The notes under the pieces were generated by a model. The model worked only from the letters and a program-made list of their open reading frames with translations, was not told the origin of the DNA and did no database searches. This document shows positions 44,360 through 64,000 of a stretch of DNA of 64,000 nt, piece by piece; position 1 is the first letter of the stretch; each line of letters opens with the position of its first letter. Both the position numbers and the translations under genes were made by a program. The stretch comes from Clavelina lepadiformis (lineage: Eukaryota; Chordata; Ascidiacea; Aplousobranchia; Clavelinidae): positions 5,828,001 through 5,892,000 of the forward strand of contig NC_135244.1 of NCBI RefSeq assembly GCF_947623445.1. Direction: 5' to 3'.

Positions 44360-45232
44360 ATGCTTACCAGAAGAGCAACTGCTCGGCTTGCAACTCCACA
44401 ACTTAGGATATGGTTGCTAAGGTATGATATACGGTAATTTTATTGCTGCTTTTTGTCCATATTTTGTACTTCATGTGAGTACTTCATTTTGTACTTCATG
44501 TTAATGAGCTATTTTTTAGCAGTTCTCATTTACGTGGACGAAAATTCTCTAGTGAAGCAAACACGCAGAAACTTGCTGAAGGTTCTGATGATAAGAAAGA
44601 AGAAGTCAGTACACCAGATGCTGAAATAAAGAAGCTGAATGAAAGTATTGTAGATTTAACAGTAAGTTAATCTTAAAACAGTTTATTTAACATGCAAACT
44701 TCTTCCACATAGTTTTTTGTTTGGTATAAATGTGTAAAAGCATATGTTATAGTCTCCATTGGTTTATAACTAGATGACCTTTAATTTACAGGAAAAATAT
44801 AAACGGGCATTGGCAGAAACAGAAAATGTACGAATGCGTCTTCGAAAGGAAATCGCAGATGCCAAGCATTTTGGAATACAAACGTTTTGTAAAGATTTGC
44901 TCACTGTAGCTGATGTGTTGCATATGGCTATTAAAAGTATTCCTGATGAACATGTTAACAAGGATTCTACCGAAGAACCCTGGAAATCATTTTACAAAGG
45001 CGTGTGTTTGACTGATAAAGAACTGCATAACGTTTTTGAACGTCACGGACTTATGGTAATGGAGCCAAATAAGGGTGATAAATTTGACCCCAACGACCAC
45101 GAGGCGATGTTTGAAAGCCCCATAGAGGGCATGGAACCAGGACTGGTTAGTTTTATTCAACGCACTGGCTATAAATTGAGGGGACGGACTCTAAGAGCAG
45201 CACAAGTTGGTGTTTCTGGAAAACCAATCTAA
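44360..45232 (+). CDS. GRPEL1: GRPEL1, mitochondrial GrpE nucleotide exchange factor
   Basis: Three exons, 44360-44421, 44523-44661 and 44792-45232, give 213 residues (human GRPEL1 217). The N-terminus MLTRRATARLATPQLR is basic and without acidic residues, as expected of a mitochondrial presequence. A coiled-coil helix with KYKRALAETENVRMRLRKE follows, then DLLTVADVLHMA, and the C-terminal beta domain GYKLRGRTLRAAQVGVS that contacts the Hsp70 nucleotide-binding domain. GrpE releases ADP from mortalin (HSPA9) and supports protein import through the TIM23 motor. Family landmarks are complete. Acceptor-like TGATACAG lies 9 nt before the ATG, leaving a very short leader. The downstream receptor phosphatase is convergent. 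Confidence 0.95.
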
Positions 45233-48200
45233 AGGAGGATGTTTCATCTAATTCCCAATGCTGTGCTGGACATTTTACTGTTAAAGAGAGCAAATCAGTA
45301 TGTGGAGATGTTAAGCAACTTCATTTTGGTGGATTCAGTGCTGCTTATATAAACTGAGCGTTGTAATCTGATGATGTCTTACATAAAATCCCTGTCTGAT
45401 TTTGCATATTTTATACTTCGCCATTTTTTAGATCACAAAATTTTGGCAAAATAATTCATGGATGTTTGAACAGGCATATATTGTATTGTTAAGCTAGGAA
45501 TTGCAATAACAGCATTTTAGTTATTCAGTGTACTGTGTTCAATTTTTTCAAAAGCAGTTACATAAAAAAACGTTGCACTGATACATGCAATACCTTTTCC
45601 TAAGAAGAACTGACAAAGCTAAAGAAAATGATGTATTTCCAATTGGAGTAATTCAGTTAGTTGACACTAGCATAATGTAGTCCATGGTTAATCAGTTACA
45701 AGATTGTTTTAATTTTTGCACGACAGCCAGCGTATGAGTACTTGTATACTGTTCATCAATATCACCATTGTGAACACTTCGTTGATAAAAAAACTGTTGT
45801 AGTCATCATCAGTAAAATGCCCTTTTTGGTAAGCTTATTAATGGTTATCGCTTGGGAACCTGCTGTATCATTTCTTGCTGCAATAGGGTCAGTTTGGCAA
45901 CAGATAATCAAAATAACCTCTCAAAGCTTCAGTTCTTGGTCAACAAAAAAGCTGTACTGTAGAGCGCAGAATCAATATTTTATTTTTCACCCAAAGCGCG
46001 GTGGTGACGAAAAAGTCAAGCCAGTTGTTGTTGCCGTGCGCTAATAAACGGTAAAAAAAGTGACAAAGCCCAAATGGCTTAAAATGTGCTCCAGAATAAT
46101 TAATTAAAGTAAAAATTGCTAGTAACAACTAGCACGACCACTAAACCCATAAAGTGGAAGTTATGCAGACGAGCAGGTGGTGTGTTCAAGTAAGAGATGG
46201 TGAAGAATTGCTTCAATGCTGTACATCAGTGGATGGGAAAAGAAACTCCATCCCTGGCAAGAACCTGATTTCTGGTGGCCATGACAAAAATGTAGGGTGT
46301 TGTTGATTAGCCCGAGTTTGTACAGCAAGAATACACACCAATGATGATCTTCGGAATTCTCTGGTACATCGACAGTGATGTACGGGGAAAGATACCTATG
46401 TCGTCCATTAGATGAATCTAAATGTTCATACAATATCATTAATCCTGTATTAAACTTGAAAAGTTTACAATTACAATTCCTTTTTATGTTGTATTTTTTA
46501 CGATAACCAACGAGTTTCAAGAGTATTTGCATATAACAAGAATAAATACTGTGAGGAAGTTTAAAATCTATCTGCGCCAAGTTTCCTGGGAAAAAAACAG
46601 CAAATCCATGCTCTTTCAAATGTCACTGAAGTTTTTACGTTGTAGTTTTTTACGTAGGAAGTTCTTAGTCAAGAGTTATTTTAAAATCCTTAATTTAAGT
46701 TAAAATTGCAATGAAATAAAATTTCACTTTACACGTTCTTTGGCCGTTTGTATGTCGGAAATTTTTAAAAAAAGTGCAGCGGTAGCCCTTTTGCTATTAC
46801 AACATGCAATGTTTTCCGTATTGTAAACGGACTTTATTAATACAATACGCTTATCATAAACCTAAAAGTCTAAATGAAATTTATTCTCATCTCCTCAAAC
46901 TTGTGATAAAAATTTATTGTGTCATTAGGGACTCGCATTGGCTGATGATGTTTTATAAGGTACCTGTGCCTAATAAGGCCCGGTCCCTAATAAGGCCCAT
47001 TGCTCATATTTCGCAAACCCGTGCAAATAAATGAAAAATTTTATCCCTATATAAAAACTAATATAAATTCATGATGGTTTACCAGATTTCATCCTTGTCA
47101 CGTGATCAACCGATTCGCTAGAGCACAACAAAAATTTGATACTGTATTTGCAGTTAAGGTGGTTTTGTTAATTTAGAAAAAAAGTAAGTGAGAATTTGGC
47201 CGGTTAAATGAACTGTTGTCAGCCGGCTGAAGTTTTCATGTAACAACCAACTTAGTATTGAAAAGGATAATGCACTTTTTTTTGCTAAACTTTTTCTGAT
47301 AATAAAAATGTGACATTTTTTTCGTGGATGCCACATGCGCCTAATAAGGCCCATGCAAGATGCTTGGCTAATTGATTTCCAGACTTCAAGAGTGGTTCCA
47401 GTCATCAGTTGGCAAGTTGTTGCAGTTACTTTTTTTTTCAACCTACGTTTGTTGGTCGTTGTCCTATACACAAATTGGTGGTTGCTGTCTTGTTTTATTT
47501 GCTTAATACGATTTTTCAGCTATGTTTTGAATCAAAATACTCACAAAATTGGTGAGGCTCCTAATAAGGCCCATTTTTTGGAATTTTTAATTTCTTTATA
47601 AAAATTTTTTGGTGGGTTGTCAGGTAGGTTATTGTGGTTTTAATATGTTGTAGTCATATACCTTCACTAATAGAATACGATTTTTCAGTCTATTCTCATT
47701 TGTGTTTCTTGAGTTATTTTCAAAAAAGTGTTAGGTGAGCCTTAATTGGTACAGGTACCTTAGACTTCTTGCCAAGTATAGTTTTGACAAAGTTAATGTT
47801 ACGGCAAGGAAATTTCATCAGAAAAGCATACCTTATTAGCTATGGGGCCCATAAAGTTATAACTTGACAGAGTACATATTCCCATGTCATTAATCCGCAT
47901 TCTTTTGTTTACACCAGTTTTATAATCGATACCTATCTATGGTTGGTTTATCAAATCAGCAACGTCTCTAACGTAACTTTTTTTCCACCACATACACGCT
48001 CTTACCTTACACTTTAACCAGAAAATGACACAGCGAGGAACTGATAAATCAGCAAGCGAGACCATATTGCGACGTACTTTCTCATTTTTGCGGTATGTTA
48101 AAATTTTGCAGGGCGAATTTATTACTGGGTTAAAAAAATACGTTGAGGGCAGCATGGAATACAAGCGACGACAAGTGCTCTAAAGAATAACCAAGAAATT

Positions 48201-49289
48201 CCCAACACTTGAAAAGGTTGGTCCCAATGAAAGAGAAAAAGTTTGTAGAATATCACATATGTCTTTAAACCTGCTGCGGTATCAAAGTAACCAAACGAAT
48301 GCACTTTATCAAACTAGGCCCAAGTATAAACAGGTTAAATTCCGACCGGTTATTTAGAAATAGGTTTGAACTCAGATCTAAATTTTTAAGCACTATGATT
48401 TTAGCAGTATTGCAACGCGAGTTAGAAACTCGAAAAGGTAGTACAAGACCTACTTTTCTACATACCGCTAGACGAATAAAAGAGCACTCAGAAAACTAAG
48501 AGGAGTAACCTGACCAATTTAACCATATACATCTTAAGCCCTTTTAGTTCCCTGAGTATAGTCTTAGTTCTTTTTGTCCTCTAACGGTATTTAGAGAGGT
48601 CCGTACCAAAAGGTTTGCTTCGAAAAACAACAGAAGGATAACAAAGGTGTTAAATAGGACTAAAGCAATAAAAAAGTACAAAAATTACAAGTATGAAAAA
48701 TAACACACTGAAACGCGAGATTAAAAAAATATTCCGATAAATGACATTGTAAAACATGCACACGATTCATTTGTACGAACTAACAGGAAAAAATACTGAA
48801 AATTGTAACGAAGTACATAGAAATATAGACAGTGTTGTTTTAAAACTGTTGCTGTGATTAAATTGTTTCAACACAAGAGGCGTGATCCGGCATTTACTAA
48901 AAGGCTTAAAAGCCAAAATGTTATTTAGAATCTTCACTTAGTAACATTTCATGAACAGAAATCAAACTTAAACGGCACCACCACGTTAAGTACACAAAAT
49001 GAAATATTTTAATGTGTAAAAATCGCTCCATTTTCCAGGTAATGTTGCCCCAACATGATTTTTAAATACCCTATCACTCAATTTCATTGCTTGTAGCTGA
49101 AGTTGTCATGACTTCAAGCTGTTGCTATCGCTCCAACGCCTTTCTACTCCCTTCTGAAGTTCTGACGAATGAGGCTTTATGAGGCCGTTAATGCACCGAA
49201 TCCTTGGTTCAACCCGAACATTAACGAGCTTGTTAGTTTAAGTCTGTGGCGAATTTGTAACCTTCCACAAAAGGCTGTGTGTTCCGCCA
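45233..49289. other. Convergent intergenic region between GRPEL1 and the receptor phosphatase
   Basis: Holds both 3'UTRs and the MITE at 46958-47760. The 152-codon open frame at 46161-46619 (minus) starts at a non-ATG codon and shows no domain. A sequence near 46041-46090 repeats one near 40979-41030. Confidence 0.5.
46958..47760. mobile_element. TA-flanked MITE with repeated CCTAATAAGGCCC motif
   Basis: The left end AGGTACCTGTGCCTAATAAGGC and the right end, reversed, AGGTACCTGTACCAATTAAGGC are inverted repeats directly flanked by TA on both sides. The motif CCTAATAAGGCCC recurs at about 46969, 46986, 47340 and 47560. The 803 bp body has no transposase. TA target duplication plus subterminal repeats indicates a non-autonomous DNA element of unassigned family. 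Confidence 0.7.
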
Positions 49290-52200
49290 TCATTTGAAGT
49301 TGTAATATTCGCTCATTGAATCAATATATTCCTGAACCGCGCGATAACAAAATTCGTATTGTTCCTGAAACAGGTAAAAATCAAAGAAACAGTTTAATTA
49401 AATACTTAAATGTAAAACTTGAATAGCTGAAATCACAACTGCTGTAACCGTTTGCATTTAAGCTAAGGAGTCATCTTACCAGATTTTGCACCATATGAGG
49501 TCTCTGCATTCTTAAACACTTGACAATTTGAAACATATCTAATACACCTTCAGCTTTAACTTGCTCCAGCGCAGTAGAAAGCGCACAGAAGGCTCCGGTA
49601 CGGCCAGCTCCAGCGCTATAACAAGTAACAAAATAGATCATACCGTGTGTATTGGATACACGTACAACGTGCAATAGACGTTTTGCCGAGTCCAGTCTAC
49701 TTTCACGATTTAACAAGCCGAAAATTACAAACTTGGCAATCTAACTAACCTGCAATGGATGGTGATTGGATGATTGCCTGATGTCTGCTGCTGCTTTTGT
49801 ACCTGCTCGACCAGTTCAATCATGCTGAAACCGGACACCGGTGGACCTGTTTCCGGCCAGCCGTGGTAATGAAACTGCGCAACATATATCATGTCGTCAC
49901 AATACCGAAAATGCAATTTGTACAATTTCCTCAAAAGCGTTTGAAATACAAAGCGAATTTTTTCGATGACCGACTGACCTGTCGGACCAAGTGCTTTCGG
50001 TCATTTTGATCGCCGGTGCTAGTCACGACGAAATCGCGCGTGGTGTAGTTATCCAGTTCATTTTCTGAGATATGTTCAACCTGAAGATCGCCGTATATCA
50101 TCGCCCCGTCGTCAGGCCAGTACTGCTCGCATTTAGCCTACGCAAATATAACAGCGGAAAATAAACTAATGATGCAAATGTTTCTGCATACAACTTCTAC
50201 TGAAGCAAATTTCTGATTTAGCCGAAGAGCAAGGAGTATAATGTTCCAGCCTTTTCCAGAATTTCACTACTCATGAGAAGTATCATTATTCCTACCTGGC
50301 CGCGTTCGACGAGCTCAGTCAGCATGACGATAGAGGCAGATTTCGATTCCCAGATCAACCTCCAGAAATCCTCCACTGTGTGAGGAAGAGGGCCCTGGGT
50401 GGCGATGTAGGCGTCTTTTTGACGATAACCCTGTGCGATAAATCACTGTAAGTACAATGTCCAGTATCCCGTCACTTCCAAAGCAATTCTAGTGCGATCT
50501 ACTACTTCATAGTAGCAGGATATAAATAGTAGCTCGAAGTGACTGAAGAACGCTCTTAAAATAACGAACATCTTTGAAAGTAGAAATATTTTTGCATTGA
50601 TAGTCAATTTCATATATCAACATAATTTGCCAACTCACATCAATATAGGATGCGTTGATGTAATCTGTGTTTTCAACTCCACGTTTGATAGGAAGTATAA
50701 CTCTATTCCAGTCATCTGCCAAACACGTTATTATCAATTAAACCAATCGAATTAACTAATTTAATAGTTGTTTAATATATCGTAAATTTGGTCGAACTTC
50801 CAAGTAGTCACGAAAATGATGATGAATTAATCGAACGCAAAGAGGCAGAAGGTCTGTTGAAAGGACTTACATGGCAAGATGAGGAGGACTCTGTTCTTCC
50901 TCATGTTGGCTGGATGATTACCGGCTCTCATTTGCTCCTTCTGGATCCTTATTGTCGTCAGTTTCTACATGGTTTAGAAAAGCAACTTTTAATAAATTGC
51001 TGGCAACAAAAAAAACAGTATCTAGAGTACAGTATGAATACAATACAATACATGCTAACAGATATATGATAAAGTTTTTAACCATAGCAAAATAAGCAAA
51101 TAGCAGTGTCCAAATGATAGCACGTGTTTTCAGAAATAACGTTTATCTTAAACAGTGATTCGTTCTTTCTCGCAATTGAGTTGCAAGCAATCAGTCATGC
51201 TTAGAACTTGAAATATTTCGTCACCTTAAATTCATGTTCCATGCCTGTGACGTTTCCAGGCATCCTCTGGTTAAGTTCGTCGATGTGCGCGCTAACTTCT
51301 GTCGCCTCCACCTCTGTATCTCCGTACAGGTGATGTTCCAAAAGAGCTTGATAGATGAAGATGTATTGTTGCTGCCAAAGAAAAAAACGCGTTGTGAACA
51401 CGCATGCAAGGAGATGCAAGTAAGGCTGATGTTAGAATAGGGATGAACGTGCAATTTGCGAATGGAAATATTCTGCGTGAAGCAGCTCTGTTGTCTTACA
51501 AGTTGAACCCATAGTACAAATGCAATCCGATGAATCGAACTCATGTGAATGGAGAGTTAAGACAAACGTGCTTGTAGGTCCAATGTTTGTTTAAGGGGAT
51601 TGTAAACAAACGCTCCTACCTCTGTTTGGACCATTTCTGGTCGTTGACTTCTCATCTGGGAAACGAACCCATAGACATCAACTTTATTTTCGCGTAGCAT
51701 CATGTCAACCATTGCATCGACGCAGATGAAAGTGCCAGTACGTCCGACACCGGCGCTGATACGAAAATATGAGGTCAGAAATTAATCATTGTTTAAGGCT
51801 GTTCATGTTTAGGTTTAATGGAAAATAAATATTACCTATTGATAAGCGGTTTCTATTCTACATGAAATAGAAATATGTATCTGGCTATGAAGGTGCTAGT
51901 AGTGGTTGTAAAGCAGTCCTTACTAATTTCACATTTTTAAAGTCTTACCCACCAAGATACTTAGTGGATCTACATTCTTTGCCAATACCTGGACAAAACA
52001 AAGCATCAAGTACCCAGAACATACCTGCAATGTACGACGATAGCTCCATAACCGGTAGGACTGCCGTGTTTAATTTTGCGGAGAAACTTTAGCATTCCCG
52101 ACGGTGTCTTGGGTACGCCGAAATCGGGCCAGCTGGTGAAGTGATATTGCATTAAGTTCCTGCGCATGCTTAAAGTGGCATCCCCTCGCACCTATGTTTA

Positions 52201-55200
52201 AATAGAACATGTACGATACAGATGATGAACTCACAGCATATATGTCGCAAAGTCTCAGATTAATATTAAAGTCGCTTACAATGGAACTCGTTTATTTCCA
52301 TAAATGAAAATTAAAAGTGAAAGCAAAGCGTCAACAAGTAGCTGTGAAGATATTCCCATCTCATATAAATTAAATACATTTAACCAGATTGTGTGAACAA
52401 CAAGTTTTCAATTTGGCGCCATTGCAAGTGTTGTAACAGCCGTATGCATAATTTCCCGACCTGCTGAATGGTGAATTTCCTCACGGTGTAATCCACCAGG
52501 TGATTTTCCCCGATGAATACGACGTTCAAATCATTGTAGAGCTGGCTGCCAGATTGCGGCCAATACAAGGCACATTTTGACTATGAAGTAAAAAGTTCAG
52601 TTTTCCTTTCAGTTATTTTTTTGAACTTAATTCACTAATTTTCCTACTAACTTTTCTCACTGGTATTTAGATCAGTGCAAGCGTTACGCGGCCACTTCAA
52701 ATAACAAAACGGCGGATTTGACAATTTTAAGCAATCGATAAGTAATATAATTAACCACACGAATAGTAGCCAGTGTAAATTACTATGGAGCTCGAACAGC
52801 CCGAAGCTGCAAAGAGTAATCAAGTATAGAAACGACTTAATCGATAAATAATATAACTCTCAATATTACCTCCTTCCCTTCATTAAGCTTAGTCACCATG
52901 ATGATAGTGGTCACATTTTGATCCCAAATCATTCTCCAGAAGTCATCAACCGTACATTCCTTTGGACCTTGGGCGGCTATAAATTTGCCTTTGTGTTTGT
53001 AACCCTGTGACGTTATTAGGTTTATTGTGATATCACAGGCGGGTCTTTTGTTAGGCGCTAAAACACGTTATTGTGTAACACCGTTAAAATAGAATATTGA
53101 GCAGTAAAACGTAATGGCGGCGTAAATTAACGACTTTGGTGATCAATTAATTATTTGACTTACGTCGATAAACGAAGCGTTGATGTAATCGTTGTCTGTG
53201 CCGTTTGCCTTTGGTAAAACTACTCTGGAATGATCATCTGAAAAGCAAAAAACGAACTTATTTGCTATTAATTACAGCCAAGAATGGTAGTTAAAATTGT
53301 TTGGTATAGGTTCTGAACTTCTAACAAACGTGCACTTGTGCTAAAGATTGTAACAGATAAACCGTACATGGAATGACGTTGGTGTATCTGTTCTTCTCCT
53401 TATTCATTGCTTTGCCGCCGTTTTCACGAGTTCCATGGCCTTCTGGCAAACCCTGTTGACAAAATGATGCTATCGGTGTAATAAAGACCGTGTTGACAAA
53501 AGTTACAGCAAACAAACCACGTCATTTCTTCTGCTTAACTAATGCCGATATAGTCGTCTACTCACCGAAAACTCTTCACGGAAAAGCTTGTCGTCATCTG
53601 CATGCTTTCTTGTGAATTCAGATTCAAGTCGGTCCAAGGGTACGGCGGGAAATCTTCGGTTGGTGCTACCATTCGGGATTAACTTCTGGAGCTGACTTTC
53701 ATCGTAGCGGTGTCTGAAATGTAATAACATTTGTACCAATCTCCTTATAGTTTATCTTCTTAAAACACAAAATATCGTGAACAATGGAACAGCAAAGTGG
53801 ACTGTTGGTTGCAAGTGCTTGGATATCGTTATCGTTGTTGAATAGCAAGAAAGTAGGAGTTTATTAATTGGAATAAAAAGTTTCATCGCATTATGTGAAA
53901 TTAATGGTTTTGGCGTCAGTTGCATTTCCTTCTAATTCCATCATAAATAATTAAGAGGGCAGTCTCGATAATAAAACTCAAGGACAACAATTTCAACAAA
54001 AAACGGTAGCAAGCTCTGAAACACTCACTCGGTCATTGGGATGCCTTTGCTAAAACTTTGCTTGTTGTTTCTGCGCCTCCAAACAATGCATAAGACAATG
54101 ATGACGACGATGAGAACCACCCCTACTATTGACACTGCGATTGGGATAATGGGGATGCCAGCCGAAGCGGGGTTTTCCCCAGTCCCGGGGGTAGAAGTAG
54201 GAGTAGGTGTTTTCTGGGCATCATCTCGGTTTCCGCTGCTGTTAGGTTTTTCTGGAATAACATAATCGATGGTCTTGAAAATCGCCATACAACTAACGTA
54301 AGACATAAAACAAATTAAAGTACATTGCTATATACTTGTATGCATACCGTGGACCGTATCTGTGGAGCACATGCAAGTGTACATATAGTTGCATTCATTT
54401 GCAAACAAATGACAAAAGGCTTTAACGCAAAAATAAATATCATTGTCTACCTGTAGGAATAAATGGTGGTTTTGTGTTGACAGACACTGGAGTAATACCG
54501 ATGACGTTGGTCGGTGGTGTTGCTGTTGTGCTGGTGGTGGAGGTCATGGTTGTTGTTGAACTGGTGGTAGTTGACTTTGTGGTTCTTTTCGTGGTTGCTG
54601 TCGCATTCGTTGTTGTGGTTGGTGGTGTTGTGGTGGGTATTAATTCTGCAAAAACGGTAAAAAATCTTAAATCCATGATAAAGTTCGTTCCAAGAACTGA
54701 TGTGGTGTTTAAGGAACAAGTCCACATTGCTGCTGACTGCTGTGAGTTACTGCAAAAAAGTAAAACTATACTACATGTTTGGGTTATGGTGGAAAAAGTC
54801 ACCAATACAAAATGCCATTGAAAATGAAACTATAGTTTGATTCTAAAAAGAAGTTTAGCAAACATTTTTTCATCTTAAAAGTACATATATACTGTTTAAA
54901 GCATGTTTAACATAAAACAAGTATCGCTCCAAAATTTCAAAATATTCTTCAACTAGTAACTCTGTAGATAACAGCGACAGAAAATTATATTTCAACAAAG
55001 TGTGGAGATAATAACCCTGAAGAGCCTGCTGAATATTTCACAAAAATCTAAGTCATTTTGCTTTTACACAAATTTATAAAAAAACAAGAAACATATACAA
55101 CGATGTCTACAAGCCAACCTCTCGTTCCCAATCGGCACCCAAATAAGAATGAAAGTATAATGAACTGCTGTTGCAATCAAATGTTTACACAGCATAAAAC

Positions 55201-58200
55201 AATCTTTAATTCTGTTTTGGTTCTGCAAATCTGTCAGCTTTTTTCACAAAAGAGTTTTCATAATTTTGAAACCTAACACTTAGCTAATAATTAACATTTG
55301 CTACAAATAGGTATCAAGAATAAAAAAGGAAAACTTCTTTTGCTTATACCAGCTTCCCATCTGCCTGACTCTATCATGGTTATCTTAGCACATGCTTGAA
55401 ATAACGATCTAAGCACACTTGACCATTTATGGAACCATGCTTTGTTAAACTGTTCAAAACCAGTAGCTTATGAATCTCAAGTGGCAGGCTTCAAAATCAA
55501 TCAGCTGAAAAAGTAGATTATAGAGGCCATTATGAACATATCTGTGGCCTGATGTAAATTTTTTCACAACATATTGCACGCAAACATGCATATGGTGTAG
55601 TTATTTGCTTTCCAGTACATGTGACTTGATAAACCACTGCTTCCATTTATCTTAATATATTGTATGCCAACAAAACTATCTTTCATGCTAATTCCTGGTT
55701 TTACTTTCGAGAAAATACAAATATATCCCTGGATTTTTATGCTAAGATGCTCATTATGTTAAGTTAATGAACTCCTATATGTACACAACTTGTATACATG
55801 TACAGTATATTCCTTGTGCAAATAAAATACTTCTGAGAGTATAAATAAGTACTAGTTTTATTGAGCTTAACTACTAATAGGCTTTAGTATCATATTTAAG
55901 TTATGGAATCTTTAGTGCTTACCTGTGAACTTGATTTCTTGATTAAACTGCTAAATAGAAATGTATTTTTCACCTCACACTGACCATAATGCTTTCAGTT
56001 CCTCAATTCTTTTTGGCTACATGAAAAACTACATCAGCGCAAAGCTCATAAAATGTCCTCGCCTCATGATTGGAAATGTAGACTCTGACTGTGTTTAAAT
56101 AAAAAGTAAAGGTAAGGGTACTACTTCAATAAAGTCTTTCTTCTAAACCGGCAACAGGGCTGTTAGTGTTAACAGCTTTATCTTTCTACATATTATATCA
56201 TGTCATCTCACCAAGCCATTTCAAATATTCAACACACAGTTACCAGTTACAACACACACTCTTGCTCAAATTCTTTGACATGGTGTTTACTAAGACTATG
56301 ACAGTTTCTACCAAATTGCCTATGGCTAAACTAGTGGCTTCCTGTAATGAAATTCTAATTGTATGTGCAACTTTACTATCTACGGCTTTATTTCATCTGA
56401 ATATTCTCACGTTTTTCACAGAGCATAAGCAGATACACTTTCGTGAGCTTCTTAATAGAATTAACAATATCTATTTATTTTCAATCATAAAAAACACAAA
56501 ATCTTAGAAACATGCATTATTTCACAGAAGTTTAACCATTCCATACTTTACTAAATATGGCCTCTGGGCAGCTAAGCAATTACTAAAGCAATTTTAAATG
56601 TTTGAGGAAATTTATTTAAAACGTCATTCCTGCCACAACACTCAACCATCAACTGACCTGAAAATCTGCAAAAATTATGAAAACAATTCAAAAAGATTGT
56701 GTTACCAAGTTTGTCACAACACAATTTTTCCAACTAACTGTCAATCCTAATGAATGGTAAAAGCTGCTACACCTTCACAGACTACAAGTTTATGGCCAAA
56801 CTTTTTGATACTAATTATTTCCCAGGGTATTAAGAACAATCCAAAGGTCTGATCTGTAATGAGCAAACATGCAAACAACCATAACCTACCTTTGATGTCA
56901 CTATACTCTCCTGACATTGTGGCAAGTGCAGTGAGTTCAAGCAAGTTGGTTTAAGTTTGGTCAAGTTATATTATTTTTATCCGGTTTTATAGGAACTTCA
57001 AGGGTATTTAGTTTCAGTCAGTCATATCATAACAAACACACTTTTCCTAATGTATTAGAATGATAAAAGGTACCGATAAATGATACTGAAAGGAACATGA
57101 ACGATATTATTGAATAACCTATTTTACTAGGCTTTCTATTTCTAGATTTCTAAAATATATTTGTAAACATGAGGTTATATCACAACAAACACAGTCTTCT
57201 TAATGTATGTATTAGTACAATAGAGCACAACAATTGAATAAAGCATTAAGATATCAATGAATATGCTTTACCTTGTCAATCTTTCTATTTCTAATCTTAA
57301 GTATAATTTCTAGACTAAAAATGAGTATAATATAAACTCAAGACTATGTAAATACTTTTTTAAGAAAAATAATCATGTATACACATGTACTTCGTTGCAA
57401 AAACAATTGAAAACTTGCTAATCTTTTGCAGTACCTACTGCTACTGCCTGTTTCGCTTATGCAAATCTAAAACATTTAAATTATACAGGTTTAAAATAGG
57501 ATAATAGCTATCTATGACTGTACTCGACAAAGTTGCATCTGATCTATGTACTTGTACAATATAACAAACTTTGGTAGCATTACAAAACATCATTGTAATC
57601 GATCTTTAGCTGTATTAAAACTACCTTTTACATCTTTTGAAGAACTGTTAATTAGTTCCATTGTGTAGTTCGGAAAAACTAAGTCAAATACTTAAAAGAT
57701 CAAACACAACAAAAGACTCTTGAAAACACAAAAGCATCACAAGCCTGGCTGGATCTGCACTGTAATATCGATATAAGGGATTTGAACCACGGGCTGTATT
57801 GGCAGAGTGTGAAGTTCTGTAGCTCATAATAGATCCCTAGTCTACACAGTGTGAAGTTGTGGAATGTGTTCAACAAACACACATAATCAACCATGGAAGA
57901 CAAATAGATCATAAAAACGACCAAGTCAAGATTTCAAGTTATTGTTGTATATGTTACATCATATCTCAAACACCCAAATGGTCACTTATTTAGCTATCGC
58001 AGACATACAACATAACTGTTTCATTTGGTTCATCAAAATTAAAGTAATTCGCTGGCAGCAAACAACCCACAAATGTTTAATCTTACCGCATTTGGGAAAC
58101 AGTGCAGGGGACCATGTCTTGTCTTCCTTGCATGTGGCCTTGCTAGTCCCAACCCGGTTGTAATTATCACCGCATACGAACACACACACTGAGAGATATT

Positions 58201-61200
58201 CATTTCCGCTTTGGCAAACGGTCTGACCGTTTACCAACTCTCGAATGACAGGACATTCAATTTCTGAAAGAAAACATCAAGAACATCATTAATACCAACG
58301 CCTGTCTAACTCTTCACACGAACATATACTATCTAATAAACAGTAACAAGTCGAAACCATATATAAAGTCAATGTGCGATATTAAAGTCGTACTTTGACA
58401 GGTTGGTCTGGAATCGGTCCATCTTCCGTCACGTTGGCAGGTTCTACTGCTGGCACCGATCAGCTCATATCCACGATTGCATTCGTATTCACACAAAGTC
58501 TGATAGTCATTGGACCCATCACAACTTTCAGTACCAGCCACCAACGCATCAGCTTCTTTGGGACAAGTTATTTCTACAACACATAAAAAAGAATACAATA
58601 TAAGATCCGAATAACACAAAACACAGCTCTTAGCTTTAAACAGTTGTGGTGTTTTTGCAAGGTATTTGTGTGAGAAGGGAGTATTATTGTTGGTGTTTGA
58701 TCTAAAAAATTGACTCACAAATGCACATCGCAAAAGTATGCAATATTTGAAACAATTTCACTAACTTTTGCATGATGGTGCTTTGGTCACCGTCCACCCC
58801 GACACATCACACTCGGTTTTTGGAGCTCCTTGCAATGTGAAGCCCTCATCACATTGGAAATTGCACACAGATGCATAGTTATTGAAATCTGAGCAAATGA
58901 CTCGTCCATTGCTGGGATTGCTGAAGCCAGGAGAGCAAGTAATCCCTGGGCGTAAAAAAAACTTATACATTGGAACAAGCTACGTAAAAAAACATTAAAA
59001 AAATTAAAATTTTTGAAAATTTAAAACAACTACAGCAGCTAACTGTGAAATAATCTTCAAAAACTATACCTTAAAAATGCTATACTGTATTTTAAAAATA
59101 TCCATCACATAAACGCTTCTAACTAAAATTCTATGTATTTAAATAGCTGAACTTACTTTCACAATAAGGTAGCCTTTTACTCCAAGTGCTGTTCAGCTGA
59201 CAAATGGCCGATTTTGCACCGATCAATGCATATCCCTCATCACAAGAAAAGCTGCATGTTGATCCATAGAAGGAGTCATCAGCACAATCAATCAATCCAT
59301 TTGTTGGTGGACTTAGATCATGACAAGATATTCCTGAAATTTGTGATACACAGTAATAAAAAATGCATGCCTTCGGTAAGTTCACCCAAGATAACATCTT
59401 TTAACAAATTACCTTCTCCTCCAATATTTGAGTATAAAAATAGATTCATTTAACTATTGTTCAAAAATACATACAGAGGATGGTTAGTTTGAAGCGAAAA
59501 ATGCCCATAACATTAATTTGAGTTATTCAAAGTTCAACTTAATCGAATTACGTACAATAATTGATATTAGTATAGAAGCATTTTGCCAAAACCTGTTAAA
59601 TTACATGAAGTCATCTGAAATTTTGAGTTAATCAAGGTTGAGTTATGCTTGTATTAGCTAATGGCAGCTGAAAAAAATACTCAGTAAGCTTATGTAAACA
59701 TGAACCTTAAGTTGATTAGTTTTCATTTGGTCAAAGGAAATAAAATCATTCAGTTCAAATATTACTTACGTGTGCATGTAGGCGCTTTATTATCCCAGGT
59801 CCCATCATCAGTGCAGTGTGACAGTTGATCACCGACTCTTGTAAACCCTCGATCACAAGTGTAGTTGCACTCGCTGTTAAATAAATTCTTGTCCGTGCAT
59901 TTCACTGAACCATGGTTCGGACCAACTGCTTTAGGACAGCTAATTTCTGTAAAAGCACATGGCAGCAATGAACTTTCTCCGAGCAATGAAAATGGTATTG
60001 GTACTGGATTGTTTAAGTGTTGCAATTGGATTTGATGTGTAAGTTTCTGTTTGCAAGGTTAGTATTGATAACAAAAAAGCATAAATATGGTTAATTGGAA
60101 CTGAACTTACTTTCACAAACTGGTATTTCCGAAACAGACCACGTTTCATCACTTTGACATTCTGACATGTCATTTCCAGTAAGTTGGAAGCCTTTGTTGC
60201 ATGTGAACGAGCATGTCAACAAACCTTTCGTTGTGCAAGAGATCTGCCCATTTTCGGGTGCATTTAATCGAGGATTGCAAACTAAACCTGCATAAATAAT
60301 AACAAATTTCTGTTGTTTAACTTTGACATAAAAATTTTGGTACATAAAAAATTAGAGTTAAGCGTTATGTATTTTGTTTCAAACAAGTTATGAATTTTAT
60401 TAAAGCTGTTTTGTCTATTCCGCATTTTTTATAACACTATAAAGTAAATAACAAACAAATAAAATTATCTGGTCATGTAAGTTCACAGCTTTTATTGCAC
60501 AAACTCCAATTGATGTTAAAATCCATTGCTCAATAAAATTTCATCCCTAAGCAATATTGCATATTGTCGTCATTAATTATATTATTTATATCATTGCTTA
60601 CGGTCGCAGGTTGGCTTCTCAGCATCCCAGCCATTGACACCACAAGTGGTCTCAGTTGCACCATAGTGATTAAAGCCTTTGTTACATTTAAATGTACAGT
60701 TGGACTTGTAATTATTGCCATCACTGCATGTTACAGTGCCTTTTCGCAGACTAGTTAATCTTCTGCATTGAATGCCTAGACAAAACCAATAAATCGACAT
60801 CTTCTAATTATGTTGTAATACAAGTTCAACTGAGAAACCTATTCCTTGGCTTGAAGAAGATTGATAATGGTTTTAATTTGGAAATTCTACTGGAAAATCA
60901 TTAAGAAGTGAAATGATTGCACACTACAGCAATAGCAAAAATTAGCAACTCAAATCAAATCGATTAAATCTATTGCCATTGGTAATTTCAATTAAGTGGG
61001 TTTTAAATGTATGTAAGTACAAATGTATGTTTATTTTCAGAAAATTACAATTTCAAATGTGACTTACGCTTGCAGGTTTGCTCCGGTCCACTCCATGTGC
61101 CGCTCGCACTGCAAACGACTGGGGGTGAGTTTGGAATGGACTTGGTGTAGCCTTCATCACACGTAAAGAAACATGCATTTCCATACTCATTACCCGGTGC

Positions 61201-63364
61201 TGGATAGCAAGTAACTTGTCCATGTCTCGGCTTTGTAAACATAGGACAATGGACTCCTAAGAATTTAAGTAACAAGGTTTATATTTTGTGCACAGATCAT
61301 GGAAAAAAGAAGCCCTTATTCAGCTTATAATGGATAGCGAAAATTGACAATTGAGCTGGTACTGTACAGCAATGTAATGACAATAAAGACTAAAAGAGTC
61401 TATACTGGACATACTCGGACAGGTAGGACTGGAGTCATTCCATCCACGCTCCCCACATTGTACAACCTTTGAACCTTCAACCTCATAACCTATTTGGCAA
61501 GAAAATGTGCATTTTGATCCAAAAAAATCTTCATCAGAACAACTGACTTGTCCATTAACCGGAGATAATAGATGAGAACAGGTGATTCCTGAGATAAAAG
61601 TTTGAATTGTTAATGTTTGAAAGGCAGCTTTAAGGACATTATATAACATACAACTTTACACTTAATGCGCTAAAATAAGTATCAGCATTGCAAATTACAT
61701 TACAAGCAGCAAGCGTAACATATTTTTGAAACATATACACATCACATATCCGAATGTCATGCAATATACTATAAATTACAACACTACGGAACAAATATAA
61801 AACTGAATGTTTGAAAAGCAAACCAGTAAAAACATACGTATGCATTCAGGAGATCCATGATTCCAACCTTCTGCAGTGCAAGTCAGTGATGATTCTCCTT
61901 CAATTCGATAACCAGGGTTGCACCCGAACTGGCACTTAGAGGAGTAAAATTTTCCATCGGAACAACTCAAAGAGCCATGATCAGGCGTCACCAGTTTGTT
62001 GCAGGTTTTACCTGGTGAAAGTAATTGAAATTGCCTTTTAAATATAAATCTGATGACATTTGAAACAGCAATGATGAAATTAGTGCCTTGAAGCGAAACT
62101 ACATCACAGAAGAAATTGATGCTACGTTTGCACCATGCATACTAATAATAATGAACAACACTCATTCAGTGGAAAGCAATAATATATATTTTAAGTCTCA
62201 TTAGTGTAATAAAAAACAACACTGTGTATCCCCAATCGTTTTTACATGGCCCAGGTAAAGCTAAGACGTGCGAGAGTTAACTATGTGCTAACAAAACAAG
62301 AACAATGTTATTTTCACCAATAGAATAAAAAAAAATAATAAATAAAATAAACAATAAAAAAATTTATTCTGGGAGGATAGAACAATCTACTATGTGGCAT
62401 CCAGGGCACAAAAAACAGGACAAGCTTTTCCTAAAAACAGCATGCTTTTGTCTTCCACAAACTTGAATCCATCAATTCGATCAATTAATTATTGAAGCTG
62501 TTGCATTAGAAAGCATACACCGGTTTCAAACTAGGCCAGTATTTCTTAACGAGGAGGTCGCACACACCAACAATGAAGCCTGGCAAAATTTTGGTGACGA
62601 GAATGAATTCAAATTTAACAAAGAAATGTGTAATCACTTTTTCAAATCTCATTTAGAAATTGAGCGAGATACAACTCTATTGTAACAAATCAATAGCGTA
62701 TTAAGGGTTGAGGGGCATTGGGTCATGCTCCCCTCACGAAACCGATTTTTTGGGCCATTAACGTTTTTCCAATTTCATTCCTTTTTTTTAACGCATTCTC
62801 TCGTTTGCAACCACTTATCAGATATAAAATGGTACAATAGGTGGGTATACAACGTTTCAAAATTGTAAATTACAAATTGCCAGCTATATCGTACATATAA
62901 ATATGAGAATACATTTAATTTCGAGGTGTACTAAAGTAGCTTTTTAGGGATAAGAACAAAAAATGTTTGTGCTTCGCATATACTTTGGGTGAGGTGGGCA
63001 GACGTGGGAATTCTAGACACAGCTTCTAAAAACGTTTGGCTCCCCCTTCAACCAAATTCTAAATACATTACTGATGGTAGGGTGCACGATTTTCTGGGAA
63101 TGAAAAAGTTGAGAAACACTGTATCAGGCATTATTCTTCATTCCTGCAAAGAATGAGATCAAAATGTTATATCAGAACAACACTCACGTTCACAGGTTGG
63201 TGGTGTGCTGCTCCACGTCCCATCAGCATTACACAAAGTTGATCCACTGCCAACCATGGTATAGCCCTCATCACAAGCATATCTGCATGATGACATGTAA
63301 TATTGTCCGGCCGAGCAGGTTGTTTTACCATTGGCAAGAGTGTTCAATGCTGGGCATTGGATTT
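49290..63364 (-). CDS. Receptor tyrosine phosphatase (PTPRA/PTPRE class) with at least 11 CCP/sushi domains; 5' end beyond the window
   Basis: A 28-exon model, about 1394 residues, 5' incomplete. Eleven phase 1-1 exons each encode one CCP domain (63188-63364, 61838-62011, 61415-61588, 61068-61256, 60602-60775, 60111-60287, 59770-59946, 59157-59333, 58766-58945, 58394-58573, 58087-58263), each with six Cys. Then a Thr-rich stalk (54451-54645), a transmembrane helix (54029-54251; [16 protein letters not shown] followed by RRRNN), and 15 exons from 53713 to 49290. D1 has [15 protein letters not shown] and [12 protein letters not shown]: all catalytic residues present. D2 has KNRV instead of KNRY, a WPE loop (HGWPETGPP) and [10 protein letters not shown], like PTPRA D2. 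The C-terminus ends EYYNFK, keeping a YxN Grb2-type site. Exon lengths keep frame throughout, including across the 3.4 kb intron joining CCP11 to the stalk. That join is inferred, not proven. Ligand unknown. No signal peptide lies in the window. Confidence 0.85.
54646..58086 (-). other. Large intron separating the CCP exons from the stalk exon of the receptor phosphatase
   Basis: 3.4 kb without any further CCP-like exon, much longer than neighbouring introns (mostly 70-600 bp). Both flanking splice sites are phase 1: the donor after CCP11 is G|GTAAGA and the stalk acceptor is TTTGCAG|AA. I see no signal-peptide exon, polyadenylation cluster or transposon, but an internal promoter cannot be ruled out. 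Confidence 0.5.
62537..63121. mobile_element. hAT-type MITE between CCP exons 1 and 2
   Basis: The left end CAGTATTTCTTAAC and the right end reversed CAGTGTTTCTCAAC are the typical Charlie-like hAT terminus. The flanking octamers aactaggc and tatcaggc share five positions. The 585 bp body is non-coding. It accounts for half of the enlarged intron between the first two visible CCP exons. Confidence 0.6.
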
Positions 63365-64000
63365 CTAAAAAACAATTTAATGAAATACGTCAATCCGTTG
63401 TGAAAAAGATGCTGTTTTGCGTTCTAAAATGATAAAAGTTTTTTTAAGGTCTGTGCAGACTTTCCAACTTTGTACAACCATGCAGCTGACAGCGATTAAT
63501 ACAGGTTAGACAACTTCAATAAGAGAACAACTGATAAACATGTGACAGCACTCTTAAAATAGACCAAGTGGCACACAATAAAGAAGATGATAGTGTCATA
63601 TGTATTCCACACAAGCATGTATTGAGCCCTATGGGAATGATTAACCAAACAACACGAAACGTCAGCCGTATCTATCATTGGGCATGAACTTTGATCGTCT
63701 ATAGAGTATGCTGAAGTCACAAAATGCGATCTTTTGTTTGTCAAATCTACAATAAACTAACTGATAGGTACAGCCAACCACATTGACTTTTTTCAAGGGG
63801 AACTTTTATGGACTGAGACATTCAACTTTAACACTTCTTGTTGTTAATGATTGATGAATTTTCCAGGTAAACAACGTCGCACACTATAACGTGCTTATAC
63901 CATCACATCCAAGAATACAAACAAACACATTACATGATGTGAATGAATCAGATGACAGATGTGCTAAGGAATTAAAGTTATACTTCATACAATCAAATAG
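63365..64000 (-). other. Intron or upstream sequence of the receptor phosphatase at the right edge
   Basis: The first visible CCP exon begins with a phase-1 acceptor (TTTAG|AA), so at least one more exon must lie further right. No CCP, lectin, EGF or signal-peptide exon is recognisable in these last 636 bases. Confidence 0.5.

What the first reader, a model, noticed from the sequence alone, without database searches (positions are those of the whole stretch)
49290..63364. A complement-domain receptor phosphatase: at least 11 CCP domains joined to a PTPRA-class tandem phosphatase
Seen directly: 11 CCP exons, a Thr-rich stalk, a TM helix and D1+D2 phosphatase exons follow each other on one strand, and all 28 exon phases agree. 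Established: vertebrate PTPRA and PTPRE have short, domain-free ectodomains, and CCP proteins (complement receptors, selectins) do not normally carry phosphatase tails. Inference: this lineage built a recognition receptor that signals by dephosphorylation, possibly in immune or self/non-self recognition. Ascidians are known to use polymorphic CCP transmembrane proteins (vCRL1 in Ciona), which makes the idea attractive but is only a precedent.
Basis: partly seen in the sequence, partly recalled or inferred. Interest (0 to 1): 0.88.

Follow-up and report, generated by a model that had tools for sequence, protein, structure and literature searches.

The report
Sea-squirt phosphatase receptor with complement-type ectodomain
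In a sea squirt, a well-known cell-surface phosphatase (PTPRA type) appears to carry a long outer part made of a mucin-type module, a lectin and 14 complement-type modules, instead of the short plain outer part it has in vertebrates.

Summary
The window is very probably chromosome 5 of Clavelina lepadiformis; the gene is on the minus strand. All 28 in-window exons are there and in phase: 11 CCP, stalk, TM, 8 D1 and 7 D2 exons. Beyond the window edge I found six more: CCP1-3, a ricin-B/CysR-type lectin, a mucin WxxW module and a signal peptide. The model has 34 exons and 1841 aa: SP - WxxW - lectin - 14 CCP - Thr-rich stalk - TM - D1 - D2. The tail is R4 class: PTPRA and PTPRE are its best solved relatives; the D1 active-site loops and the C-terminal YxNF motif are kept. 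The main doubt is whether ectodomain and phosphatase are one gene. The 3.4-kb gap after CCP14 holds no convincing end for a CCP gene or start for a phosphatase gene, so the halves complement each other; no transcript was available. Among the PTP loci compared, it is the only one where CCP exons plausibly belong to the phosphatase, but the CCP lists were partial. An immune or self/non-self role is not shown; a Ciona Ptpra is reported in print as notochord-specific. I rate it a new variant of a known kind.

The parts
58087..63364 (-). Exons 7-17 of the model, CCP4-CCP14: 63364-63188, 62011-61838, 61588-61415, 61256-61068, 60775-60602, 60287-60111, 59946-59770, 59333-59157, 58945-58766, 58573-58394, 58263-58087. 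Exons 1-6 (signal peptide, WxxW, lectin, CCP1-3) lie beyond the window edge, see the Full report section
   Evidence: Sushi; phase 1-1 each; borders of 14 of 14 CCP exons recovered exactly by an exon scan trained on this same model
54646..58086 (-). 3441-base intron (or gene boundary, the main doubt) between CCP14 and the stalk
   Evidence: scored scan: no signal-peptide exon; symmetric-exon scan: one candidate, negative coding score; no strong TM in 7 possible terminal exons; one weak signal-peptide candidate each
54451..54645 (-). Exon 18, Thr-rich stalk
   Evidence: phase 1-1; 37% Thr over the 87 residues from the stalk start; donor the weakest of the model
54029..54251 (-). Exon 19, rest of stalk, TM helix [21 protein letters not shown], juxtamembrane
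   Evidence: mean hydropathy 3.35 over 21 residues, the maximum of the protein; phase 1-2
51225..53713 (-). Exons 20-27, phosphatase domain D1 and linker: 53713-53566, 53452-53368, 53237-53164, 53004-52870, 52580-52461, 52191-52025, 51755-51620, 51371-51225
   Evidence: Y_phosphatase; aligned to PTPRA 6uzt
49290..50964 (-). Exons 28-34, phosphatase domain D2, C-terminal YYNFK and stop: 50964-50871, 50715-50639, 50430-50296, 50137-49979, 49874-49750, 49615-49480, 49364-49290
   Evidence: Y_phosphatase; aligned to PTPRA 6uzt

Best explanation
One gene encodes a type I receptor phosphatase of class R4 (PTPRA/PTPRE by its tail) whose usual short ectodomain has been extended in front by SP - WxxW - lectin - 14 CCP modules; the Thr-rich stalk next to the membrane may be what remains of the ancestral ectodomain. 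Proposed working (inferred): the lectin and CCP array bind a partner on matrix, glycans or a neighbouring cell. Binding, or exclusion of so long an ectodomain from close contacts, sets where and in what oligomeric state the phosphatase sits. The active D1 then removes the inhibitory C-terminal phosphate from Src-family kinases, and the C-terminal pYxNF site docks SH2 proteins such as Grb2, as known for PTPRA.
For: Shown by sequence: 34 exons, one frame, 1841 aa, with signal peptide and stop. Pfam: 14 Sushi, 2 Y_phosphatase, WxxW, CysR/ricin lectin. PTPRA is the best solved relative. D1 keeps KNRY, WPD and [11 protein letters not shown]2 has KNRV, WPE and [10 protein letters not shown] as PTPRA D2 does in the alignment; the tail ends YYNFK against YANFK. 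The upstream half has a start but no end, the downstream half an end but no start: in the 3.4-kb gap the scored scan finds no SP-type exon, the symmetric-exon scan one candidate with a negative coding score, and none of 7 possible terminal exons has a strong TM. The stalk+TM query hits only this locus. WxxW followed by CCP exons on one strand also occurs at C1:19.20-19.24 Mb and C5:17.71-17.76 Mb, so that order is not odd in this animal. PTPRA dephosphorylates Src Y527 and its phosphorylated Y789 recruits Grb2: PMC7959691, passages read.
Against: No transcript or protein evidence. Two introns are long (7.9 kb before the lectin, 3.4 kb before the stalk), of the order of the intergenic gaps here (about 2.7 and 4.1 kb). 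Weak splice sites: WxxW acceptor 2.2, lectin donor 2.2, stalk donor 1.1 bits; the thresholds would have missed WxxW and stalk and did misplace the lectin donor, so 'no exon found' in the gap is not proof, and that scan was trained on the model itself. The SP exon has a negative codon score, and two other SP-like candidates lie between WxxW and lectin (scores 12.8 and 12.3, within background), so WxxW could be outside the gene. Phase agreement has low power, because CCP and juxtamembrane exons are usually phase 1 (recalled). Looser scans gave two weak SP candidates in the gap, 55377-55296 and 56917-56773. No ligand, activity or localisation was tested.
Confidence: 0.66

Rival explanations
1. 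Two neighbouring genes on one strand: a secreted or membrane WxxW-lectin-CCP protein (76.0-58.1 kb) and an ordinary PTPRA with a short Thr-rich ectodomain (54.6-49.3 kb).
For: Stalk plus TM exon alone would give a PTPRA-like ectodomain of about 100 aa; the gap is of intergenic size; reading through the CCP14 donor gives a short tail and a stop; AATAAA/ATTAAA occurs six times in the gap, which by my own estimate from base composition is no excess.
Against: No convincing signal-peptide exon in the gap, while the same scan found one above all 12 background hits at the 5' end of the model; no convincing last exon or TM for a CCP gene; CCP14 has an average donor (7.5 bits).
Confidence: 0.17
2. One locus, two kinds of transcript: a full-length CCP-phosphatase and, through read-through after CCP14 or a second promoter, a secreted CCP protein or a short PTPRA.
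For: In-frame read-through of CCP14 runs about 30 residues past the donor to a stop, with poly(A)-type hexamers further down; weak SP candidates in the gap.
Against: Nothing positive beyond weak signals.
Confidence: 0.15
3. One gene, but the role is developmental adhesion (for example notochord or matrix) rather than immune; the ectodomain is a matrix-binding spacer.
For: Ciona Ptpra is described as notochord-specific with mosaic expression (PMC11728170, passages); PTPRA acts at focal adhesions and junctions (PMC7959691, passages); a lectin and WxxW module suit mucous or matrix ligands (inference).
Against: Orthology of the Ciona gene and its ectodomain were not tested; no Clavelina expression data.
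Confidence: 0.4
4. One gene, acting in immune or self/non-self recognition.
For: CCP3-14 are closest among solved structures to complement receptors CR1/CR2 and factor H; polymorphic CCP proteins of Ciona and the fester family of Botryllus are precedents (PMC5465252, PMC12065747, passages); Botryllus ampullae are said to express CD45-like RPTPs and Src kinases.
Against: CCP likeness does not tell ligand; each CCP is 40-49% identical to its best partner in the array, so there is no sign of recent expansion; no polymorphism data; the Ciona Ptpra report points to notochord.
Confidence: 0.15

Closest known systems
PTPRA and PTPRE (receptor phosphatase class R4)
   Same: Tandem D1-D2, intact D1 loops, C-terminal YxNF; KNRV/WPE in D2 as in PTPRA; Thr-rich stretch before the TM
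   Different: Vertebrate PTPRA/E ectodomains are short and free of domains (recalled); here WxxW, lectin and 14 CCP modules precede the stalk
Complement receptors CR1/CR2 and factor H
   Same: Long tandem CCP array; best solved matches to CCP3-14 (CR1 476.5, CR2 265.3, factor H 211.9 bits)
   Different: No phosphatase tail in these proteins (recalled); here a lectin and WxxW at the front and a PTPRA-type tail
Mannose receptor family (CysR domain)
   Same: CysR/beta-trefoil lectin domain over Pfam cut-off; weak PDB sequence matches to MRC2 and mannose receptor, E 0.008-0.013, below two plant ricin-type lectin chains at E 0.0007-0.0008
   Different: No FN2 or C-type lectin domain among the families that Pfam reported
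Ciona vCRL1 and Botryllus fester family
   Same: Tunicate proteins with CCP domain(s) (PMC5465252, PMC12065747, passages)
   Different: The passages read describe fester as Ig + Sushi + three TM and FcoR tails with ITIM/hemITAM motifs; none is described there with a phosphatase domain
Other receptor phosphatases of the same genome
   Same: Two sampled clusters also have long ectodomains
   Different: Fragments there read as FN3 arrays (C1:4.86 Mb) and Ig/EGF/FN3 (C2:20.78 Mb), by eye; no CCP seen

Membership tests
Receptor PTP class R4 (PTPRA/PTPRE) | Catalytic region closer to PTPRA/PTPRE than to other RPTPs | tested here: met
   889.5 and 775.7 bits against 582.4 for the next, PTPRF; no tree was built
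Receptor PTP class R4 (PTPRA/PTPRE) | D1 with KNRY, WPD, HCSAGxGRTG | tested here: met
   [25 protein letters not shown]
Receptor PTP class R4 (PTPRA/PTPRE) | D2 with the PTPRA changes KNRV and WPE | tested here: met
   [10 protein letters not shown] and HGWPETG aligned to PTPRA KNRV and HGWPEVG; that these lower activity is recalled
Receptor PTP class R4 (PTPRA/PTPRE) | C-terminal Tyr in YxNF | tested here: met
   EYYNFK against DYANFK; four YxN in the cytoplasmic part
Receptor PTP class R4 (PTPRA/PTPRE) | Short ectodomain without folded domains | tested here: not met
   If one gene: WxxW, lectin and 14 Sushi precede the stalk; so it is filed as R4 by its tail only
Complement receptor / regulator (RCA type) | Tandem CCP domains | tested here: met
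   14 Sushi
Complement receptor / regulator (RCA type) | Binds C3b/C4b fragments | not testable with these tools
   needs a protein binding assay
Mannose receptor family | CysR domain near the N-terminus | tested here: met
   PF24562 E 1.3e-8 for the exon frame, over cut-off
Mannose receptor family | FN2 domain and tandem C-type lectin domains | tested here: not met
   no such family reported for the joined protein
Polymorphic allorecognition receptor | High polymorphism between individuals; expression at the contact tissue | not testable with these tools
   one haplotype only, no RNA data

The most novel reading that the evidence does not exclude
In this tunicate the R4 receptor phosphatase has become a recognition receptor: a lectin plus a complement-type array reads glycans or complement-like ligands directly into Src-family kinase control, a one-molecule counterpart of the separate receptor and CD45 of vertebrate immune cells.
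Probability: 0.17. Interest if true: 0.82.

Novelty: new variant of a known kind. Interest (0 to 1): 0.56.

Why it matters
PTPRA and PTPRE lack clear ectodomain ligands in vertebrates (recalled). A chordate relative with a large modular ectodomain would show that this class can carry a ligand-binding outer part, offer a protein in which ectodomain control of R4 phosphatase activity can be tested directly, and give one more case of domain shuffling by phase-1 exons in tunicates. It also makes a concrete question: did vertebrates lose, or tunicates gain, the long ectodomain.

Tried and rejected
Signal-peptide scans of the 3.4-kb gap at three settings: strict (one weak candidate), relaxed (one other weak candidate), scored against background (none). 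A second CCP-phosphatase at C4:4.73-4.77 Mb was fetched and read: the PTP there reads by eye as a cytosolic PTPN23-like gene and the CCP exons, about 36 kb away, as part of a separate CCP+VWA-like gene, so it was rejected. The WxxW-CCP locus at C5:17.7 Mb was read at one end: EGF-like, CCP and VWD-like fragments by eye, no phosphatase seen. ARAGORN on 45000-64000 and Rfam (gathering scores) on 40000-64000 gave 0 hits. The promoter/terminator scan is bacterial and says nothing here. Six paper searches for a Sushi-phosphatase receptor: no listed title or abstract start is about one, and passages read in six of the listed papers (PMC11788884, PMC12065747, PMC3335823, PMC9848320, PMC9083331, PMC2394772) describe none; of the others listed only PMC12065747 and those just named were opened, and no protein database was searched, so this is weak evidence of absence.
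Full report
Where the window lies. The window is G000:C5:5828001-5892000. Seven contig lengths seen (C1 28.78, C2 26.53, C3 25.73, C4 25.07, C5 24.62, C7 20.45, C8 19.51 Mb) agree within about 0.01 Mb with the chromosome table of Clavelina lepadiformis kaClaLepa1 in PMC10884593 (passages read). That paper gives 210.1 Mb in 102 scaffolds; here 209.06 Mb in 95 contigs. I infer the same assembly or a trimmed copy of it.

The observation. The frame ends with ...SEYYNFK and a TGA whose last base is 49290.

The gene runs out of the window. I fetched 40 kb beyond the edge (L009-L012) and continue the window numbering there (64001 = C5:5892001). Three more CCP exons (exons 4-6: 66323-66138, 65996-65811, 64257-64081) and a lectin exon (exon 3: 67368-66970) continue in the same phase. 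Pfam on the joined protein from lectin to stop reports 14 Sushi stretches (E 1.6e-101), 2 Y_phosphatase stretches (E 1.4e-168), CysR_MRC2_N (30.2 bits, cut-off 27) and Ricin_B_lectin (29.9 bits, cut-off 29); on the lectin exon frame alone the last two score 35.2 and 34.6 bits. A Mucin2_WxxW exon (exon 2: 75582-75304; E 5.3e-10) and a signal-peptide exon (exon 1: 76002-75891) lie further upstream. The latter scores 15.9 in a scan whose best background hit is 13.5, out of 12 hits in 90 kb (window 1-45000, both strands). Two other candidates, at 73275 (12.8) and 73603 (12.3), fall within the background range but lie between WxxW and lectin; if one of them were the true start, WxxW would not belong. 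Joined, the 34 exons give 1841 aa with one stop, at the end. The WxxW acceptor is the weakest acceptor of the model (2.2 bits), the stalk (1.1) and lectin (2.2) donors are the weakest donors of those scored, and the SP and last exons have negative leave-one-out codon scores. Upstream on the same strand is a Sec1-family gene whose last open frame ends at 78748; downstream on the other strand a GrpE frame at 44774-45229.

What the tail is. Against PDB sequences the cytoplasmic part matches PTPRA best (889.5 bits), then PTPRE (775.7), then PTPRF (582.4) and LAR (579.1). In the printed alignment D1 has [12 protein letters not shown] and [11 protein letters not shown]2 has KNRV, HGWPETG and [10 protein letters not shown], with V and E at the positions where PTPRA has them; these are said to lower D2 activity (recalled). 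The last residues are EYYNFK against DYANFK. PTPRA dephosphorylates the inhibitory Src site Y527, and phosphorylated Y789 recruits Grb2 and others (PMC7959691, passages read). The tail therefore looks like a working PTPRA tail; enzyme activity was not tested.

One gene or two. This is the main doubt. The 3.4-kb gap between CCP14 (58087) and the stalk (54645) is of the same order as the neighbouring intergenic gaps, and stalk plus TM alone would make a PTPRA-sized ectodomain. Against two genes: (a) the scored scan finds no signal-peptide exon in the gap, though looser scans gave one weak candidate each; (b) a scan for symmetric phase-1 exons, which recovers 14 of 14 CCP exons with exact borders, finds one candidate in the gap, with a negative coding score. 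That scan was trained on this model, misplaced the lectin donor and would miss exons with sites as weak as those of WxxW and stalk. In the 7.9-kb WxxW-lectin intron it gave two candidates, both with negative coding scores, and one positive on the decoy strand. (c) Of 7 possible terminal exons listed in the gap none has a strong TM (best mean hydropathy 1.94 over 19 residues, in a 22-residue piece). The upstream half thus has a start and no end, the downstream half an end and no start. I put about 0.8 on one gene (alone or with extra isoforms).

Is it alone in this genome. Two of 43 lie within 50 kb of a Sushi place: this one (4.5 kb) and C4:4.73 Mb (35.6 kb). The C4 locus was read: its phosphatase looks PTPN23-like and the CCP exons look part of another gene (by eye). 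Limits: one search scored 150 of 1412 Sushi candidates, one search scored 150 of 194 and its printed list was cut, so a CCP-phosphatase could be missed. Two receptor-phosphatase clusters were sampled and read as FN3 (C1:4.86 Mb) and Ig/EGF/FN3 (C2:20.78 Mb) (by eye). The protein search with lectin plus CCP1-4 found no other place matching the lectin part, though the ricin-B family as such has 12 other places; stalk+TM matches only itself. WxxW places lie just before CCP arrays on the same strand at C1:19.204 Mb and C5:17.759 Mb, so WxxW in front of CCPs recurs; these are adjacencies, not gene models.

How it may work. Shown by sequence: secretion signal, extracellular modules, one TM, PTPRA-type tail. 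Known for PTPRA: Src activation and SH2 docking. Inferred: ligand binding by lectin or CCPs, and control by clustering or by exclusion of a very long ectodomain from close contacts. CCP3-14 match CR1 (476.5 bits), CR2 (265.3) and factor H (211.9) best among solved proteins, but long CCP arrays match one another generally, so this does not name a ligand. Each of the 14 CCPs is 40-49% identical to its best partner within the array, so there is no sign of a recent expansion.

In Ciona, a gene called Ptpra is reported as notochord-specific with mosaic expression, and its predicted protein to hold four YxNx motifs (PMC11728170, passages read). The cytoplasmic part here also has four YxN and the ectodomain two more; I did not see the Ciona protein, so its ectodomain is unknown to me. 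Precedents for CCP proteins in tunicate recognition are vCRL1 (PMC5465252, passages) and fester/FcoR (PMC12065747, passages), none described there with a phosphatase domain. An adhesion or developmental role is at least as likely as an immune one.

Novelty. Six searches of the paper library listed no title or abstract start about a Sushi-containing receptor phosphatase. Passages read in six of the listed papers describe none: PMC11788884, PMC12065747, PMC3335823, PMC9848320, PMC9083331, PMC2394772. In PMC9848320 and PMC9083331 the phosphatase is mentioned as a name-giver of the MAM domain; PMC2394772 counts Y_phosphatase among hub domains of animal-specific combinations and does not contain the word Sushi. 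The other listed papers were not opened for this and no protein database was searched, so earlier annotation of this or a related gene cannot be excluded. Papers holding the word multidom, whose Ciona expression resembles Ptpra (PMC3034685, PMC10605842, PMC2966392, passages), gave no domain description. I file the gene as a new variant of a known kind: an R4 receptor phosphatase by its tail, with an ectodomain that does not fit the class.

Noticed in passing
G000:C1:4.66-5.05 Mb, C1:9.45-9.73 Mb, C2:20.72-20.84 Mb: Large clusters of PTP exons, in the first on both strands, an apparent expansion of receptor phosphatases; two sampled places have FN3 or Ig/EGF/FN3 ectodomains by eye.
   Followed up: partly
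G000:C8:18.635-18.81 Mb: Many Sushi hits come in pairs of equal or nearly equal score about 79.4-79.5 kb apart (e.g. 18695213 and 18774686), which suggests a recent tandem duplication or an uncollapsed haplotype.
   Followed up: no
G000:C1:9669612 and 9697735: PTP hits with equal scores 28.1 kb apart over several exons, a recent duplication of a phosphatase gene.
   Followed up: no
G000:C1:28631225-28641481: An open frame of 3801 aa carries repeated Sushi-like and ricin-lectin-like hits without a stop, unlike the one-CCP-per-exon layout of the gene studied.
   Followed up: no
G000:C1:19.204-19.242 Mb and C5:17.7135-17.7594 Mb: A WxxW exon precedes a long CCP array on the same strand, as in the gene studied.
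   Followed up: partly
L061-L065, G000:C4:4764777-4771170: A separate gene with CCP and VWA-like fragments; between it and the PTPN23-like gene lies a long open frame at 4760888-4762291 that reads like a DDE transposase (by eye).
   Followed up: no
window 44774-45229 (+); L010:4748-5964 (-): Neighbouring genes: GrpE-family and Sec1-family.
   Followed up: yes
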